Shown here: positions 4,618-62,165 of the stretch, piece after piece
How the letters are laid out: each line of letters starts with the position of its first letter
Numbering within the stretch: position 1 is the stretch's first letter
Assembly (NCBI GenBank): GCA_020724465.1
Contig: DYGX01000005.1
Coordinates: 124,001-188,000, forward strand
Direction: 5' to 3'
DNA: 64,000 nucleotides
DNA from: Thermoflexus sp.
GTDB taxonomy: Bacteria; Chloroflexota; Anaerolineae; Aggregatilineales; Aggregatilineaceae
The notes under the pieces: generated by a model
Told to the model about the DNA's origin: nothing
Databases searched by the model: none
What the model saw: the letters and a program-made list of their open reading frames with translations, nothing else
Made by a program: the position numbers and the translations under genes

Positions 4618-5913
4618 TTGACCGACCTGTATTCACCCGGCCCTTCACCCGCGCGCCGCACGCGCATGCGCCTGGTGTTTGCCGGCGCCGCACTCGCGCT
4701 TGCGCTGGGCGCGGCTGCCGGTGTGTGGTGGGCCGTGCGGCCGGGCGAGGATCTTGCCGCGCCGACCGCAACCCCGCCGATTCCGTCTGACCTCGCGCCG
4801 GACGCGGTGACCGACCCCCCCTTTCCCTCGCTGACGTACGGCATTCACACCTTTCTGTGGTGGAACGAAACGACGCGCACGTTTGATCTGGACATGGTGC
4901 GGCTGATGAACTTCACGCATGTCAAGCAGCGCTTCGCCTGGCTGGATGTTGAGCCGCAGCCGGGCGAGTGGCACTGGCAGCACGCCGACGCCGTGGTGGA
5001 CGAGGTTGACTATCGCGGATTGGAGATTGTCGCGCGGATCGACGGCGCGCCGGATTGGGCGGTGCGCCCGCTCGACGCGCCCGACGACGCCCCGATCGAT
5101 CTGGACGCCTGGGCCGAATACTGCGGCGCGGTTGCGGGGCGCTACCAGGGCCGGATCGCCGGGTACCAGGTCTGGAACGAGCCGAATCTGCGCGTCGAGT
5201 GGTATGGCAACCCGCCGAACGCCGCCGGATATGTCAGGCTGCTGCGCGCCTGCGCCGAAGCGATCCGCGCCGCCGACCCGGACGCGGTCATTATCTCGGC
5301 CGGGCTGGCGCCGACCGGCGGCCCCATGCCGGACGCCATGCCCGATCTCGACTACCTGCGCCAGATGTACGCCGCCGGAGCCGCGCCCTATTTCGACGTG
5401 CTGGGGCTGAACGCGCCCGGCTACGCGGCGGCGCCCGAAGTCTCGCCGGACGAAGCCGAGGCCACCTACGGCCACCGCTGGATGGCCTTCCGGCATGTCG
5501 AGGACGCGCGCGCGATTATGGTCGAGCAGGGGGACGCGGCCAAGCAGGTGGCGCTGCTGGAAGTGGGCTGGACGACCGACCCGCGCCCCGATGTGATCTA
5601 TGCCTGGCACGCGGTCGACGAGGCGACTCAGGCCGCCTATCTGGTCGGTGCCTATCGCTGGGCGGCGCAGCACTGGCGTCCCTGGGTCGGGCTGATGGTG
5701 ACGATCTACATGGCGGATATCAACTGGACCGAGGATGACGAAGAATACTGGTGGGCGATCAACACGCCCGGCTATCCACCCCGCTATCGCCAGGCGTACA
5801 TCGATCTGGCGAACATGGAGAAGGTGATGGGCGACCGGGTGATCCCGGCGCGGGACCCCGGCGCGCCCGAAGCGCAATTTGTCCCGACGCTGTCGCCGCG
5901 CAATTCTGAATGA
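4618..5913 (+). CDS. Membrane-anchored clan GH-A glycoside hydrolase, paralogue of the preceding gene
   Basis: Second GH-A protein with an N-terminal membrane anchor (about residues 18-40), a short Pro/Thr linker and a barrel domain. The acid/base Asn-Glu pair is in VWNEPN near residue 187 and a candidate nucleophile Glu is in LLEVGW near 315. The shared phrase DVEPQPGxxxW in both proteins shows common ancestry. The TTG start at 4618 is chosen because GAGGAG lies ten bases upstream; an in-frame ATG at 4666 would remove part of the positively charged N-terminus. It is shorter than its neighbour mainly because of a shorter linker. Substrate unknown. Confidence 0.75.
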   Translation: MTDLYSPGPSPARRTRMRLVFAGAALALALGAAAGVWWAVRPGEDLAAPTATPPIPSDLAPDAVTDPPFPSLTYGIHTFLWWNETTRTFDLDMVRLMNFTHVKQRFAWLDVEPQPGEWHWQHADAVVDEVDYRGLEIVARIDGAPDWAVRPLDAPDDAPIDLDAWAEYCGAVAGRYQGRIAGYQVWNEPNLRVEWYGNPPNAAGYVRLLRACAEAIRAADPDAVIISAGLAPTGGPMPDAMPDLDYLRQMYAAGAAPYFDVLGLNAPGYAAAPEVSPDEAEATYGHRWMAFRHVEDARAIMVEQGDAAKQVALLEVGWTTDPRPDVIYAWHAVDEATQAAYLVGAYRWAAQHWRPWVGLMVTIYMADINWTEDDEEYWWAINTPGYPPRYRQAYIDLANMEKVMGDRVIPARDPGAPEAQFVPTLSPRNSE

Positions 5914-18127: not shown

Positions 18128-20800
18128 ATGAGAGTGCCGCTTTCGTGGTTGAAAGACTACGTGGATATCACGATCTCGGTTGAGGAGCTGGCCGAGCGGC
18201 TGACGCTGGCCGGGCTGGAAGTGACCTCGATCGAGTATATCGGCATCCCCCAGGGCGAGCCGCGCCCTGGGCTGGTGCTGCCCCCCTCGACGCACCTGGT
18301 GTGGGATCGGGAAAAAATCGTGCTGGGCGCCATCCGCGAGGTGAAGGCGCACCCCAACGCCGACCGGCTGGTGCTGGCGATGGTCGATTATGGCGGCGAC
18401 GAACTGGAACAGTGCGTGACCGGCGCGCCGAACCTGTTCCCCTACAAGGACAAAGGGCCGCTCGATCCCCCGCTGCTGGCGCCGTTTGCGCACGAGGGCG
18501 CCGAAGTGATCGACGGGCACGGCGAAAACGGCGCACGGATGATCCTCAAGGAGCGTGTGCTGCGCGGCATTCCCAACCGCAGCATGGTCTGCTCCGAAAA
18601 GGAGCTGGGCCTCTCGGACGATCACGAGGGGATCCTGCTGCTCGAAGACGAGCGCTACCGCGCGTTTGCGCCGGGGACGCCGCTTCAGGATGTGCTGGGC
18701 GACGCGATTCTGGACATCGACATGCTACCCAACATTGCGCGCGCGTACAGCATCCTCGGCGTGGCGCGCGAGGTTGCCGCCCTGACCGGCGCGACGTTGC
18801 GCTATCCGCCGCTCGACGTGGTGATGAAAGGGCCGCCCATCGCGGGGCAGGTGCAGATCGCGATTGTGGAGCCGGAGCTGAACCCGCGTTTCACCCTGGC
18901 GCTGATCCGCGACGTCACGATCCGGCCTTCGCCCCAGTGGCTCCAGCGACGCCTGAAACTGGCCGGCATGCGCCCCATCAACAACATCGTCGACGCCACG
19001 AACTACGTCATGCTGGAGCTGGGCCAGCCGCTGCATGCCTTCGACTACGATGTGCTGGTCGAGCGGGCGGGCGGCGACGCGCCGACGATCATCACCCGCC
19101 TGCCGGAGCCGGGCGAGCGCCTGACGACGCTTGACGGCGAGGAGCACGTCCTCGACGACTTCAACATCCTGGTGGCCGACACCAAAGGCGCGCTGAGCCT
19201 GGGCGGGGTGATGGGCGGCCTGGAGAGCGAGGTTCGGGACGGGTCGGAGCAGGTGCTGGACGCGGTCGGGATCGTCGCCGGCGAGCCGGATAACGACGAG
19301 GTGCCGCCGCCCACCGGCAAAGCGTCGGTGCGCGGCCCGGCGACGCGCAATGTGCTGCTCGAAGCGGCGGCCTGGAATTTCATCAACATCCGCCGCACCA
19401 TGCAGAGCCAGAAGATGAGTTCCGAGGCGGGGATGCGCTTTAGCCGGGGCGTGCACCCGGCCATGGCCGAGCGCGGCCTGCGGCGCTGTATCGAGCTGAT
19501 GCGCCAGATCAGCGGGGGCGTGGTGGCGCAGGGGATCATCGACGCCTACCCGCTGCCCGCGCCGGTGATCCAGGTCGATCTGCCGCTGAGCGAAGTCTCG
19601 CGCCTGCTGGGCATCACTATCCCGAAAGACGAAGTGGTGCGGATTCTGCGCGGGCTGGAGTTCAGCGTCGAGGATCGCGGCGATTCGCTGCTGGTGACGG
19701 TCCCCGATCACCGGCTGGACATCGGCACGGGCCTGACCGGGCGCTCCGATCTGGTCGAGGAGATCGCGCGCGTCTACGGCTACGACCGCCTGCCGAACAC
19801 CATCATTCAAGACGCGCTGCCGCCGCAGTGGGCGAATGTGGCGCTGGAGCGCGAGGAGCTGGTGCGCGATGTGCTGGCGAAAGCCGGGTTGCGCGAGATC
19901 GTCACCTACCGGCTGACCACGCCGGAGCAGGAAGCTCTGCTCACCCCGCCGGGCCAGCCTTCAAGCTGGCCTCAGGTGCCTTACGTGACGCTTGCCAACC
20001 CGATCACTGCCGACAAGACGGCCATGCGTCATACCCTGCTGGCCGGGATGCTGGCGGTTGCCGCCGCCAACGCGCGCCACACGGACCGCCAGCGTCTGTT
20101 CGAAGTTGGCCGGGTGTATCTGCCGGTTGAGGGTCAGACGCTGCCCGACGAGCCAACGCACATTGGCCTGCTGCTGACCGGCCCGCGCGACCTGCCGTCG
20201 TGGCAGGGCGACGACCGGCGCGGCCCGGTCGACTTCTTCGATCTCAAGGGCGTGATCGAGGCCATGATCCGCGATCTGCGCCTGAGCGGCGAGGTGGTCT
20301 ACCGGCCTGTCGAACACAGCACCTTCCACCCGGGCCGCGCCGCCGAACTGGTGATCGATGGTCGCGTGGCGGGGGTGCTGGGCGAGGTTCACCCGCTGGT
20401 GCGCGAGGCGTTCGGCCTGGGGTTGGACCTCGGCAAACCGGTGCTGGCGGCGGAGCTGGACCTGGACGCGCTGGCTGCGGGCATCGCGCCGCTGCGCCAT
20501 ATCGCGCCGGTTCCGACGCAGCCGGCGGTGTACCAGGATATCGCGCTGGTGGTGGATCGCACGGTGCCGGCAGCCGATGTCGAAGCGGTGATCCGCGAGG
20601 CAGGCGGCGAGCTGCTTGAAGCTGTGCGCCTGTTCGATGTGTACGAGGGCGACCCAATTCCGCCGGGCAAGAAGAGCCTGGCCTACAGCCTGACCTACCG
20701 CGCGCCCGACCGCACGCTGACCGATCAGGAAGTCGCCAGGGTGCACGACCGGATCGTGCGCGCGGCGGAGAAGCGCCTGGACGCGGCGCTGCGCGCGTAG
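18128..20800 (+). CDS. pheT: Phenylalanyl-tRNA synthetase beta subunit
   Basis: The 890-residue beta subunit, slightly longer than usual. Domains in order: N-terminal MRVPLSWLKDYV; an OB-fold tRNA-binding domain (about 55-205, with AHPNADRL and CSEKELGLS); B3/B4 editing region (about 250-460, with INNIVDATNYVMLELGQPLHAFD and the GGVMGG loop); B5 (about 475-555); a catalytic-like domain with LAKAGLREIVTY; and the FDX-ACB anticodon-binding domain (about 795-890, beginning PAVYQDIALVV). The extra length lies mainly in the N-terminal domain insertion about 70-90 and in the stretch about 385-405. It ends the T-box transcript, followed at once by a phased repeat array. Confidence 0.97.
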   Translation: MRVPLSWLKDYVDITISVEELAERLTLAGLEVTSIEYIGIPQGEPRPGLVLPPSTHLVWDREKIVLGAIREVKAHPNADRLVLAMVDYGGDELEQCVTGAPNLFPYKDKGPLDPPLLAPFAHEGAEVIDGHGENGARMILKERVLRGIPNRSMVCSEKELGLSDDHEGILLLEDERYRAFAPGTPLQDVLGDAILDIDMLPNIARAYSILGVAREVAALTGATLRYPPLDVVMKGPPIAGQVQIAIVEPELNPRFTLALIRDVTIRPSPQWLQRRLKLAGMRPINNIVDATNYVMLELGQPLHAFDYDVLVERAGGDAPTIITRLPEPGERLTTLDGEEHVLDDFNILVADTKGALSLGGVMGGLESEVRDGSEQVLDAVGIVAGEPDNDEVPPPTGKASVRGPATRNVLLEAAAWNFINIRRTMQSQKMSSEAGMRFSRGVHPAMAERGLRRCIELMRQISGGVVAQGIIDAYPLPAPVIQVDLPLSEVSRLLGITIPKDEVVRILRGLEFSVEDRGDSLLVTVPDHRLDIGTGLTGRSDLVEEIARVYGYDRLPNTIIQDALPPQWANVALEREELVRDVLAKAGLREIVTYRLTTPEQEALLTPPGQPSSWPQVPYVTLANPITADKTAMRHTLLAGMLAVAAANARHTDRQRLFEVGRVYLPVEGQTLPDEPTHIGLLLTGPRDLPSWQGDDRRGPVDFFDLKGVIEAMIRDLRLSGEVVYRPVEHSTFHPGRAAELVIDGRVAGVLGEVHPLVREAFGLGLDLGKPVLAAELDLDALAAGIAPLRHIAPVPTQPAVYQDIALVVDRTVPAADVEAVIREAGGELLEAVRLFDVYEGDPIPPGKKSLAYSLTYRAPDRTLTDQEVARVHDRIVRAAEKRLDAALRA

Positions 20801-20808
20801 AGGCGGCT

Positions 20809-20926
20809 AAGAACAGCTCAAGACAGCGATATGCAGCCAAGAGCAGCAAGGACTAACCCCTGTGCTGCTCTTTCTGTTTCTCGCTGCTTTTTTGCTGCTC
20901 TTGGCTGTTCTTGGCTGCTTTTTGCC
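20809..20926. repeat. 10-bp phased inverted repeat array, locus 1 (between convergent pheT and the CAP/LysM gene)
   Basis: The left arm (20809-20853) is about four 10-base units of the form ACAGCNAAGA/AGCAGCCAAG. The right arm (about 20864-20926) is about six 10-base units of the form GCTGCTCTTG, the reverse complement of the left units. The array fills the gap between two convergent stop codons and would fold into a long imperfect hairpin ending in T-rich stretches, so it could terminate both transcripts. Two larger arrays of the same type lie at 60286 and 61965. Confidence 0.75.
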
Positions 20927-34442: not shown

Positions 34443-34480
34443 CCGCGAAGATCGTTGATTGTGGATTTTAGTCGTCTAAC

Positions 34481-34510
34481 AAAGGGTCACAAAGGGTCAT
34501 AAAGGGTCAC
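34481..34510. repeat. Three tandem 10-base repeats (AAAGGGTCAY)
   Basis: AAAGGGTCAC, AAAGGGTCAT and AAAGGGTCAC follow each other without gaps. The third contains the stop codon of the lipase gene. They lie 39-68 bases upstream of the HTH gene's -35 box and one helical turn apart, so they may be a multi-site operator. Confidence 0.65.
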
Positions 34511-48975: not shown

Positions 48976-48986
48976 TTGTGGTGCAA

Positions 48987-49370
48987 GGTGGAGGTGCCGG
49001 GAATCGAACCCGGGTCCAAGAGATTCGCGAACAGACCTCTACAAGCTTAGCTGGCTCGTTAGCTTCGCGCCGCGGGTACCCGAGCCAACCAGGGCATGCC
49101 GCGGGCTAGCCGGTGGATTCTTGGCCGCTGCTTACCGGCGTCGCAGCGGGGCACCCTGCTCTTTGTGACGCCTGCTTGCCGCCCGAGCAGGGACGGTCGG
49201 GGCAGACGGGTCACCCTCGGGTGACCGGTGTCCGTCCGGCTACTTACGCAGCCAGAGCGAGACGAGGAGTGCTTTCGTTGGCACTTATTGTTGTGCTCTG
49301 GATTAACGAGGGTAGAGCGCCTCGGCTTGCAGTCTGGGCGCAGCCTCCCCTGTCGAAGCCTGTCACCCCC
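48987..49370 (-). ncRNA. ssrA: Transfer-messenger RNA (tmRNA)
   Basis: Rescues stalled ribosomes and tags the nascent peptide. The 5' end GGGGGTGAC (from 49370) pairs with CACCTCC (48996-48990) to form the acceptor stem with discriminator A at 48989; the T-arm GGTTCGATTCCCGG lies just before it. The encoded 3' end reads ACC then T, so the final A is probably added after transcription. The tag frame at 49282-49244 reads ANESTPRLALAA then TAA, with the canonical ALAA end. The bases before it (AACAATAAGT) fit the resume signal. Pseudoknot stems fill 49000-49240, with clear hairpins. A one-piece tmRNA of about 384 bases. Confidence 0.95.
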
Positions 49371-58884: not shown

Positions 58885-60285
58885 ATGAAGATCACCTTTC
58901 ATGGTGCGGCGCGGACGGTTACCGGATCGCAGCATCTGATCGAGGTCAACGATCACCGCATCCTGCTCGACTGCGGCCTGTATCAGGGCAAGCGCGACGA
59001 GTCGCTCCGCCGCAACCGCAATCTGCCCTTCGATGCGTCGTCGATTGACGTGATGGTGCTCAGCCATGCGCACATTGATCACAGCGGGAACATTCCCACA
59101 CTGGTCAAGAGCGGGTTTCGGGGCGATATTGTCTGCACCTTCGCCACGCGCGATCTGTGCTCGACGATGCTGATGGACAGCGGCTCGATCCACGAGCGCG
59201 ACGCCGAGTTTCTGAACAAGAAGCGGGCGCGCAGCGGCGAGCCATCTATCGAACCGCTGTATACCGTCGAAGACGCGGTGAACAGCCTGGAGTCGTTTGC
59301 CGCGGTGGGCTATCACCGCCAGCGCGAGATCGCGCCGGGCGTCTACGTCACCTTTCTCGACGCGGGGCACATGCTGGGCAGCGCGATCGTGGTGCTGGAC
59401 ATCGAGGATCGGGACGTGGGCCGCGATGTGTGTCTGGTGTTCAGTGGGGACCTGGGGCGCGCCAATATCCCTATCCTGCGCGATCCGGAGTCGGTCGATC
59501 ACGCCGATGTGCTGATCTTGGAGAGCACGTACGGCGATCGCGAGCACGAGCCGTACTTTGACTCGGAGAAGCGGCTGGAGCGCATCGTCAACGACACGTA
59601 TCGCCGGGGCGGGGCGCTGATCATCCCGGCCTTCGCCGTGGGGCGCACGCAGCAGTTGGTCTACACGCTGCACCGGATGATGGTCCGCCGCGATATTCCG
59701 GCGCTGCCCGTGTTCGTGGATAGCCCGCTGGCGATCAACGCTACCGCGGTTTTTCGCCTGCATCCCGAAGCCTACGACTCCGAGATCCGCGCTTTCATGC
59801 TGGCCGAAGGCGACCCGTTCGGGTTCGACTCACTGGTCTACACGCGCTCGGTCGAGCAGAGCAAAGAGTTGAACTTCCGCCGCGACCCGTTCATTGTCAT
59901 CAGCGCCAGCGGGATGGCCGAGACGGGGCGCATCCTGCACCATCTGCGCAACCGCATCGAAGACCCCAGCAACACGATTCTGATCGTGGGATGGCAGGCG
60001 CCGGACACCCTGGGCCGCCGGCTGGTGGAAGGTGTGTCGCCGGTGCGCATCTTCGGAGAGGAATACACCGTGCGGGCGCGGGTCGAGGTGATCAACGGTT
60101 TTTCGGGGCATGCCGACCGCAGCGAGCTGCTGGCCTGGGCGGCGGCTATCAGCAAGCGACCGCGCCACACCTTTCTGGTGCACGGCGAAGAGGCAGCGGC
60201 GCTGGCCCTGGCCGACGGCCTGCGCACGGAAGCGGGCTATGAGGACGTGGCCGTGCCGGAGATGCATCAGTCGGTCACGATCTGA
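58885..60285 (+). CDS. Beta-CASP metallo-beta-lactamase ribonuclease (CPSF-like)
   Basis: A 466-residue protein of the YSH1/CPSF-73-like class: SHAHIDHSG (His 61, His 63, Asp 65, His 66), AGHMLGSAIV, FSGDLGR, LESTYGDREHE, then the beta-CASP domain with IPAFAVGRTQQL, FVDSPLAINATAVFR, ISASGMAETGR and a final GFSGHADRSEL. Its role is likely RNA endo- or exonuclease in RNA processing. AAAGGA eight bases before the ATG. It follows the RNase D gene by 53 bases. A large phased repeat array starts immediately after its stop. Confidence 0.93.
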   Translation: MKITFHGAARTVTGSQHLIEVNDHRILLDCGLYQGKRDESLRRNRNLPFDASSIDVMVLSHAHIDHSGNIPTLVKSGFRGDIVCTFATRDLCSTMLMDSGSIHERDAEFLNKKRARSGEPSIEPLYTVEDAVNSLESFAAVGYHRQREIAPGVYVTFLDAGHMLGSAIVVLDIEDRDVGRDVCLVFSGDLGRANIPILRDPESVDHADVLILESTYGDREHEPYFDSEKRLERIVNDTYRRGGALIIPAFAVGRTQQLVYTLHRMMVRRDIPALPVFVDSPLAINATAVFRLHPEAYDSEIRAFMLAEGDPFGFDSLVYTRSVEQSKELNFRRDPFIVISASGMAETGRILHHLRNRIEDPSNTILIVGWQAPDTLGRRLVEGVSPVRIFGEEYTVRARVEVINGFSGHADRSELLAWAAAISKRPRHTFLVHGEEAAALALADGLRTEAGYEDVAVPEMHQSVTI

Positions 60286-60556
60286 GCGAAAAGCAGCGAA
60301 GAGCAGCCAGGTACAGCAAAAAGCAGCAAAAAGCACAAGAAGCAGCAAGAAGCAGCTAAGAGCAGCGAAAAGCAGCGAAAAGCGGGCGACGCGGCGGTGT
60401 GGTTTTGCTGTCTCTAGCTGTCTCTAGCTGTCTCTAGCTGTCTTTAGCTGTCTTTAGCTGTCTTTAGCTGTTTTTCGCTGTTCTCGGCTGTTCTTGGCTG
60501 TCTTTAGCTGTTTTTGGCTGTTTCTTGCTGTTCTTCGCTGTTTCTTGCTGTAGTTT
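60286..60556. repeat. 10-bp phased inverted repeat array, locus 2
   Basis: The left arm (60286-60383) consists of about ten 10-base units such as AGCAGCGAAA and AGCAGCAAGA. After a 23-base spacer the right arm (60407-60556) has 15 units, all starting GCTG and exactly ten bases long (GCTGTCTCTA three times, GCTGTCTTTA four times, then variants). Right units are the reverse complement of left units, giving a giant imperfect hairpin with A-tracts phased at about one DNA helical turn. It ends 15 bases before the infC promoter. Positions 60302-60328 are identical to 61972-61998 in locus 3. Confidence 0.85.
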
Positions 60557-60570
60557 GCCGCGTTTTTCGG

Positions 60571-60599
60571 TTGACGAAATGGGGCCACTATGCTACACT
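60571..60599 (+). promoter_or_regulatory. Promoter of infC-rpmI-rplT
   Basis: TTGACG (60571-60576), 17-base spacer, TACACT (60594-60599). The transcript would start near 60606, so any infC start must lie downstream of it. Confidence 0.8.
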
Positions 60600-60653
60600 G
60601 ACACCCCAAAGTCAGCGAAAAAAGACGGTGCACAGTCGGAAAGGACAAGGGCC

Positions 60654-61175
60654 ATAAGCACAGGAGAGTACCGGGTCAACGACCGAATTCGCGCCCGCGA
60701 GGTTCGGCTGATCAACGACGAGAACGAGAACGTTGGCATCGTTCCGCTTCAGAAAGCCTTGCAGCTCGCTCAGGAGCGTGATCTCGATCTGGTCGAGGTG
60801 GCGCCCAACGCCAATCCGCCAGTCTGCAAGATCATGGATTTTGGCAAGTTCCAGTACGAGCGTGCCAAGAAGGAGCGCGAGGCCCGCAAGCAGCAGAAGC
60901 AGGTCGAGGTCAAAGAGATCCGGTTACGCCCCAAGACCGACGATCACCACCGTTCGTTTAAGGTGCGCGATGCACGCCGCTGGCTGGAAGACGGGATGAA
61001 GGTCAAGGTGCGCATCCGCTTCCGGGGCCGCGAGATCACCTATCCGGAAATCGCGCGGGATATGTTGAGCGAGGTCGCCGAAGAGTTGAAGGATGTCGCG
61101 ATCGTCGAGCAGGCGCCCAACATGGAAGGCCGCACGATGTTGATGGTGCTGGCTCCTGCCCCGGAGAAGAAGTAG
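60654..61175 (+). CDS. infC: Translation initiation factor IF-3, predicted non-canonical AUA start
   Basis: Binds the 30S subunit and checks initiator tRNA pairing. The protein reads STGEYRVNDRIRAREVRLI at its start, through the linker with YERAKKEREARK, to the C-terminal domain KIRLRPKTDDHH...(EIRLRPKTDDHH) and MKVKVRIRFRGREITYP. No ATG, GTG or TTG exists in frame between the promoter's transcription start (about 60606) and residue 28. ATA at 60654 has AAGG and GGG motifs a few bases upstream and precedes the conserved N-terminus exactly, as AUU/AUC/AUA starts do in other bacterial infC genes, where they mediate autoregulation. rpmI and rplT follow. Confidence 0.9.
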   Translation: MSTGEYRVNDRIRAREVRLINDENENVGIVPLQKALQLAQERDLDLVEVAPNANPPVCKIMDFGKFQYERAKKEREARKQQKQVEVKEIRLRPKTDDHHRSFKVRDARRWLEDGMKVKVRIRFRGREITYPEIARDMLSEVAEELKDVAIVEQAPNMEGRTMLMVLAPAPEKK

Positions 61176-61927: not shown

Positions 61928-61959
61928 ACCGGCGTTCGAACGATCCGCCGGTTTTTTTG
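61928..61959 (+). terminator. Terminator after rplT
   Basis: ACCGGCG (61928-61934) pairs with CGCCGGT (61946-61952), followed by TTTTTTG. Confidence 0.8.
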
Positions 61960-61964
61960 TTCGG

Positions 61965-62165
61965 AGCGAGAAGCAGCCAGGTACAGCAAAAAGCAGCACG
62001 AAGCAGCTAAGGGCAGCGAAAAGCAGCAATATACCGTAGAATAACGGCCGGACGACGCAAATTTCGCTGTCTTTACCTGTCTTTCGCTGTTCTTCGCTGT
62101 TTCTAGCTGCTTCTAGCTGCTTCTAGCTGTTTCTAGCTGCTCTTTGCTGTTCTTTGCTGCTTCCA
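61965..62165. repeat. 10-bp phased inverted repeat array, locus 3
   Basis: The left arm (61965-62030) has about seven 10-base units (AAGCAGCCAG, GTACAGCAAA, AAGCAGCACG, and so on); a 35-base spacer follows; the right arm (62066-62165) has ten units starting GCTG/CCTG and ending CTTTC, TTCTA or similar. It lies between the rplT terminator and the start of the methyltransferase gene, whose ribosome binding site begins right after the last unit. Confidence 0.82.

What the first reader, a model, noticed from the sequence alone, without database searches (positions are those of the whole stretch)
60286..60556. Ten-base phased inverted repeat array: about 10 left units and 15 right units between a ribonuclease gene and infC
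The left half is made of AGCAGCNAAR units and the right half of exactly ten-base GCTGTYYTYN units, the reverse complement. The DNA has A-tracts and T-tracts once per helical turn, which would bend it, and the RNA would form a very long imperfect hairpin directly upstream of the promoter of an essential operon. The architecture (two arms of phased minisatellite) is not one I can match to a named repeat family. It could serve as a terminator-insulator, a curved upstream element or a nucleoid-protein site.
Basis: seen in the sequence. Interest (0 to 1): 0.75.

Follow-up and report, generated by a model that had tools for sequence, protein, structure and literature searches.

The report
Two-armed ten-base repeat arrays between genes
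Between many of its genes, and especially directly after stop codons, one genus of Chloroflexota bacteria (class Anaerolineae) carries about 55-60 mirror-image arrays of a loosely conserved ten-base unit; they sit where the known REP repeats of other bacteria sit but are built differently, and most likely act where transcripts end.

Summary
Window 60285-60551 holds a 10-bp-period purine arm (RRRRRCAGC) and its inverted pyrimidine arm (GCTGYYYYY). It is one of about 55-60 such arrays in this 4.4-Mb genome, three of them in the window. The family occurs in all 3 genomes of the genus and in none of 151 other genomes of the order. The arms always run purine-first, pyrimidine-second (39 of 40 arrays, plus 20 of 20 in congeners). 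Arrays abut stop codons (median 3 nt, against 81 nt on the start-codon side), often supply the stop codon, are enriched between convergent genes and are rare between divergent ones. Orthologous arrays keep position, core and phase but gain and lose units. An unexpected internal rule: the two arms carry different unit types, so native arms pair worse than swapped arms (50 of 54). Location matches REP/BIME elements, but no REP tag, REP-type palindrome or linked REP transposase was found. Most likely they act at transcript ends as bidirectional hairpin boundaries (terminator and/or 3'-end stabiliser, about 0.45). Rivals are a phased DNA-protein (gyrase- or nucleoid-protein-like) site and a self-expanding repeat held in check by selection. 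A-tract curvature is not a family property. New variant of a known kind.

The parts
60285..60383 (.). [quoted passage not shown]
   Evidence: TRF; unit positions; junction
60384..60406 (.). spacer (loop) between the arms
60407..60551 (.). right (pyrimidine) arm: GCTGYYYYYN units, exact 10-bp period, ends 19 bp before the infC -35
   Evidence: TRF
58885..60285 (+). upstream gene: metallo-beta-lactamase/beta-CASP/RMMBL ribonuclease; its stop codon abuts the array
   Evidence: ORF; Pfam
60571..60599 (+). infC promoter TTGACG-17-TACACT, also seen upstream of infC in several family members that lack the array
   Evidence: conservation by eye
60606..61175 (+). infC (IF-3) coding region; exact start not determined, it must lie downstream of the promoter
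61928..61958 (+). ordinary intrinsic terminator after rplT, upstream of the second array
   Evidence: sequence; hairpin + T-run score 17.1
61969..62028 (.). second array, left arm (6 units)
62066..62164 (.). second array, right arm (10 units); ends 12 nt before the SpoU-methylase start codon, next to its Shine-Dalgarno
   Evidence: Pfam
20799..20847 (.). third array, left arm, after a + strand gene
20864..20922 (.). third array, right arm, before the stop codon of a convergent gene

Best explanation
A genus-specific family of dispersed intergenic elements that acts at the RNA level where transcripts end. Each element is a purine-rich arm followed by a pyrimidine-rich arm. Because the inversion is symmetric, transcription from either side produces a 5' purine arm pairing with a 3' U-rich arm: a long imperfect hairpin with a G-C clamp (CAGC/GCUG) and a U-rich tract every ten bases. 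Inferred action: several successive chances to release RNA polymerase in either direction (bidirectional terminator/insulator), and/or a 3' or intercistronic hairpin that blocks 3' exonucleases, as proposed for REP/BIME elements. SHOWN: the anatomy, polarity, placement, turnover, genus restriction and hairpin-plus-U-tract potential. INFERRED: transcription of the arrays, termination and stabilisation.
For: Order is purine arm then pyrimidine arm in 39 of 40 G000 arrays (1 mixed, 0 reversed) and 20 of 20 congeneric arrays. Placement: 25 convergent / 26 tandem / 4 divergent loci against 20/149/53 intergenic gaps of 80 bp or more in 468 kb of the same genome (convergent enrichment P=3e-9, divergent depletion P=0.005). 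Stop-codon side median 3 nt, start-codon side 81 nt (P=1e-10). 47 of 51 array directions that follow a gene hold a hairpin of at least 12 kcal/mol directly before a T-rich 8-mer, mean 22.3 against 12.0 for shuffles; only 87 of 378 other gene 3' flanks reach 12. In tandem arrays the sense RNA is more stable than the antisense in 12 of 17 (P=0.03). REP elements have the same placement and are discussed there as transcribed RNA elements (PMC3733652). Terminators with A-tracts before the hairpin can act in both directions (PMC4824070).
Against: The two arms are of unlike type and pair worse than arms swapped between arrays (50 of 54 arrays, P=1.5e-9), the opposite of compensatory covariation. No canonical short-loop terminator is found in the two window arrays tested, and the window array itself does not beat its shuffles for hairpin + T-tract (18.3 against 19.3). 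9 of 28 tandem arrays end 25 nt or less from the next start codon, beside its Shine-Dalgarno, leaving no room for a promoter (3 of 30 for canonical terminators, P=0.05), so a full stop there would silence the next gene. The rplT array follows an ordinary terminator. Rho is present, so no missing-terminator argument applies. The hairpin + T-tract score shows no sense bias in tandem arrays (P=0.5).
Confidence: 0.45

Rival explanations
1. A DNA-level, helically phased protein platform. A sequence-specific protein (a nucleoid-associated protein, or gyrase through its DNA-wrapping domains) reads GCTG + pyrimidine tract once per turn on one face in each arm, at gene ends where transcription-driven positive supercoils collect.
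For: 530 of 579 unit steps are exactly 10 bp. Core GCTG is 96-99.6% fixed while pyrimidine identity and base 10 vary freely, also between species (core 0-9% differences, pos 5-7 about 20% and mostly transitions, pos 10 48%); no compensatory core changes were noticed. Arms are kept unlike, so perfect pairing is not wanted. Median array 157 bp. The E. coli gyrase motif has a central part and two flanking regions of about 47 bp with ~10.75-bp periodic GC content, and gyrase sites are over-represented in BIME-2 elements (PMC6379681). Convergent-gene enrichment.
Against: Spacing between arms varies widely (0 to about 95 nt), unlike a fixed enzyme footprint. The period is 10.0, not 10.5-10.75. No binding protein was identified. 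Isolated single units are not clearly enriched outside arrays.
Confidence: 0.3
2. A self-expanding (slippage and inter-locus copying) minisatellite with little host function: it fills intergenic spacers up to the limits set by stop codons, Shine-Dalgarno sites and promoters, and purifying selection against promoter damage explains the gap distribution.
For: Unit numbers differ at almost all of 11 orthologous sites between two species about 93% identical. Homogenised runs are shared by distant arrays (GCTGTTCTTA x5 in four loci), and the two window arrays share an atypical 27-nt stretch. Arrays often fill the whole gap. Two sites have an array in one species and none in another. Genus-restricted.
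Against: Within units the core is nearly invariant while positions 5 and 10 drift, which homogenisation alone would not give. Polarity is never reversed. Sites are conserved across the genus. Convergent enrichment is more than absence from divergent gaps.
Confidence: 0.2
3. DNA-uptake-type signal or recombination signal, with inverted pairs doubling as terminators, as for the Neisseria DUS.
For: Ten-base unit, inverted, at gene ends, genus-level specificity; DUS have genus-level dialects (PMC3630211, listed; not read).
Against: Isolated units are not clearly enriched outside arrays (GCTGYYYYY 131 against 91 and 68 against 46 for the reversed control, ratios similar to the array-free G001), whereas uptake motifs occur in hundreds to thousands of copies per genome (abstract of PMC2346458).
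Confidence: 0.03

Closest known systems
REP elements / BIMEs (GTAG- and CGTC-tagged palindromic repeats)
   Same: Dispersed, intergenic, fold-back; mainly between convergent and unidirectional genes, close (<20 bp) to the 3' ends of flanking genes, termini often provide the stop codon (PMC3733652).
   Different: REPs are 20-40 bp palindromes with a GTAG or CGTC tag and short stems. Here each unit is a non-palindromic 10-mer, repeated 3-17 times in two opposed arms of unlike type, without tag and with no REP-type transposase near arrays.
A-tract/U-tract bidirectional intrinsic terminators
   Same: Purine arm 5', U-rich arm 3' in both directions; gene ends, convergent pairs.
   Different: Far longer (81-257 bp), multi-unit, mismatched arms, begins at the stop codon; no canonical short-loop terminator in the two window arrays tested.
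Neisseria DUS / Haemophilus USS inverted pairs
   Same: About ten-base unit, inverted pairs at gene ends, lineage-specific (from general knowledge).
   Different: Found only as arrays, not as many single copies.
MIRU/VNTR minisatellites, BOX elements
   Same: Intergenic tandem units with copy-number turnover (from general knowledge).
   Different: Those are direct arrays or modular elements of longer units; no obligatory inverted two-arm structure of 10-mers.
Gyrase binding motif / BIME-2 gyrase sites
   Same: Two flanking regions of ~10-bp GC periodicity around a centre; gene-end location.
   Different: Period 10.0 rather than 10.75, variable centre, binding untested.

Membership tests
REP/BIME (GTAG or CGTC super-families) | 20-40 bp palindromic unit with a short stem | tested here: not met
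   unit is a 10-bp non-palindromic direct repeat; the palindrome exists only at array level
REP/BIME (GTAG or CGTC super-families) | GTAG or CGTC tag at one end | tested here: not met
   no common GTAG/CGTC terminus seen in the printed junctions and orthologous arrays, inspected by eye
REP/BIME (GTAG or CGTC super-families) | intergenic, convergent/unidirectional, next to 3' ends, may supply the stop codon | tested here: met
   searches compared with PMC3733652
REP/BIME (GTAG or CGTC super-families) | linked REP-associated tyrosine transposase (RAYT) | tested here: not met
   three Y1_Tnp matches in G000 (C22:95442, C6:20522, C4:11464), none near a listed array
Rho-independent terminator | stable hairpin directly followed by a U-rich tract in the transcribed direction | tested here: met
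   47 of 51 directions, above shuffles and above other gene ends
Rho-independent terminator | short-loop GC hairpin recognised by a standard consensus scan | tested here: not met
   0 in each of two window arrays, shuffles mean 1.0
Rho-independent terminator | ends transcripts in vivo | not testable with these tools
   no RNA data
DNA uptake sequence | single copies enriched genome-wide | tested here: not met
Gyrase site | gyrase binding/cleavage | not testable with these tools
   only architectural likeness
Known Rfam family | match at gathering score | tested here: not met
   only tmRNA in the window

The most novel reading that the evidence does not exclude
The arrays are purpose-built gyrase (or gyrase-like/nucleoid-protein) loading platforms: two helically phased arms wrap around the enzyme on either side of a centre, placed between convergent genes and after operons to remove transcription-driven positive supercoils. 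The unlike arms would then avoid a perfect palindrome while keeping the phased signal.
Probability: 0.12. Interest if true: 0.75.

Novelty: new variant of a known kind. Interest (0 to 1): 0.52.

Why it matters
It is a compact, lineage-restricted family of boundary elements that converges on the genomic niche of REP/BIME repeats with a different architecture. The anti-matched arms, shared phase and species-level turnover make a clean natural test of whether such elements work as RNA hairpins, as phased DNA sites, or only as tolerated self-expanding repeats. It also shows how repeats can take over gene ends and supply stop codons.

Tried and rejected
A-tract curvature: only 119 of 612 units have a 4-T/A tract; no curvature model was computed. 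Uptake signal: isolated units not clearly enriched. Loss of Rho as driver: rho present in all 18 genomes of the family. RAYT/IS200-type mobilisation next to arrays: no linkage. Contamination, plasmid or foreign-island origin: tetranucleotide composition of array regions matches the chromosome. Assembly artefact: orthologous arrays in independent assemblies of congeners. Unit-type orientation set by gene sense: no consistent relation by inspection; weak relation with local GC skew (rho -0.42, P=0.01), not pursued. Arm lengths matched within an array: only r=0.19. Generic occurrence elsewhere: in GTDB genomes outside the genus the 4-unit pattern finds only single-arm arrays, apart from two stray opposite units in one. 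Genes were called with a simple codon-usage caller of my own, so start codons are approximate; stop codons are firm.

Full report
WHAT IS THERE. Between the stop codon of a beta-CASP/RMMBL ribonuclease gene (58885-60285) and the infC promoter (TTGACG-17-TACACT, 60571-60599) lies a two-armed array. Its left arm at 60285-60383 is built of RRRRRCAGC units with a 10-bp period, a spacer follows, and the right arm at 60407-60551 is built of GCTGYYYYYN units with an exact 10-bp period. The + strand RNA folds to -131.7 kcal/mol (z -8.7) and the - strand to -97.0 (z -4.1). The window contains two more copies: one after rplT, downstream of an ordinary intrinsic terminator (61969-62164), and one between convergent genes (20799-20922).

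FAMILY AND DISTRIBUTION. In the whole genome (4.42 Mb, 56 contigs) three consecutive units match 289 times against 0 for the reversed control. Mapping gives 58 array clusters in 55 loci and 612 units; more degenerate copies exist. All three genomes of the genus carry the family, and none of the 151 other genomes of the order does. Outside the genus the pattern finds essentially single-arm minisatellites only. Composition of the array regions is that of the chromosome.

RULES OF THE FAMILY. (1) Period: 530 of 579 steps are exactly 10 bp. (2) Core: GCTG is 96-99.6% fixed and positions 5-9 are 94-99% pyrimidine but free between C and T at 5-8; position 10 is free. Between congeners, with aligned orthologous arrays, differences are 0-9% in the core, about 20% at positions 5-7 (mostly transitions) and 48% at position 10 (the alignments favour matching cores, so the core figures are lower bounds). 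(3) Polarity: the purine arm always precedes the pyrimidine arm; 39 of 40 arrays in this genome, one mixed, none reversed, and 20 of 20 in congeners. (4) Unlike arms: the fraction of C at position 7 in one arm is anticorrelated with that in the other (r=-0.74, P=2e-4; position 6 r=-0.63), replicated in congeners (r=-0.64, P=0.001). One arm is GCTGYCTTTA-like and the other GCTGYTCTTN-like. Native arms carry more mismatches than arms swapped between arrays in 50 of 54 cases (P=1.5e-9), mostly accounted for by the two types, and RNA duplex energies agree. This fits either one asymmetric founder or a filter against long perfect palindromes; the data do not separate them.

PLACE IN THE GENOME. In 468 kb taken without regard to arrays there are 20 convergent, 149 tandem and 53 divergent gaps of 80 bp or more. 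Array loci are 25, 26 and 4. Arrays lie a median of 3 nt from a stop codon but 81 nt from a start codon (P=1e-10). At 32 of 64 stop-codon junctions the stop codon lies in one phase of the array, (CAGC)TRA(RRRCAGC), against 6.4 expected, and several proteins end in array-encoded residues such as AKSS. A caution: a frame that enters an array can only stop in that phase, so part of this excess is by construction. In 9 of 28 tandem arrays the far end touches the next gene's Shine-Dalgarno region, and at infC it touches the promoter, which several family members that lack the array share. Arrays thus fill the space between functional signals.

EVOLUTION. G002 is about 93% identical. Its arrays sit at the same sites, yet unit numbers change at almost every one of the 11 compared (infC: 8+14 units here, 4+7 there). 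Two sites have an array in one species and none in another, without a clean insertion signature. Copying between loci is suggested by an atypical 27-nt stretch shared by the two arrays flanking infC-rpmI-rplT and by GCTGTTCTTA x5 in four distant arrays.

HOW IT MAY WORK. Purine-first polarity, 3'-end placement and convergent enrichment are what a bidirectional transcript-end hairpin needs. 47 of 51 gene-following directions hold a strong hairpin directly before a T-rich tract, well above shuffles and above other gene ends. A long left arm starting at the stop codon would put the inner hairpin beyond reach of the terminating ribosome, which represses tR2 when it is only a few bases from the stop codon (PMC4824070); that last link is inference. 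Against a simple terminator stand the anti-matched arms, the lack of short-loop terminators in the window arrays, and arrays with no room for a downstream promoter. Those last cases would better suit an intercistronic, REP-like hairpin. The leading alternative is a phased DNA site: fixed core, exact period and unlike arms all fit, and the E. coli gyrase motif has a similar two-periodic-arm layout (PMC6379681), but the inter-arm distance is variable and no protein is known.

COMPARISON WITH KNOWN KINDS. Placement, including donation of stop codons, is that described for GTAG/CGTC REP elements (PMC3733652). The defining features of REP were tested and not met: no palindromic 20-40 bp unit, no common tag seen at the junctions inspected, no linked RAYT. 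So it works like REP/BIME in place and perhaps function, but is not filed as a member. The literature searches made did not turn up a description of this family; that is a limited search of open-access papers.

Noticed in passing
window 34479-34510: Another ten-base intergenic direct repeat, (A/T)CAAAGGGTC x3, with a different motif; not inverted.
   Followed up: no
window 60302-60330 and 61982-62010: The two arrays flanking infC-rpmI-rplT share an atypical unit run AGCAGCCAGGTACAGCAAAAAGCAGCA, suggesting copying or conversion between arrays 1.7 kb apart.
   Followed up: partly
L022 (5988-bp contig of a congener): Five arrays within 6 kb, some with a CAGA variant core; array density varies strongly between contigs (G000 C29, C13 and C51 are also dense).
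   Followed up: no
L081 4408-4553 against L050 about 5560-5595: Array in G002, next to a gene's Shine-Dalgarno, with no array at the orthologous site of the window genome.
   Followed up: partly
window 48986-49370 (-): tmRNA gene (Rfam RF00023).
   Followed up: no
family-wide: Within units, C at positions 6-8 tends to occur once only (CCT 18 seen against 55 expected).
   Followed up: no
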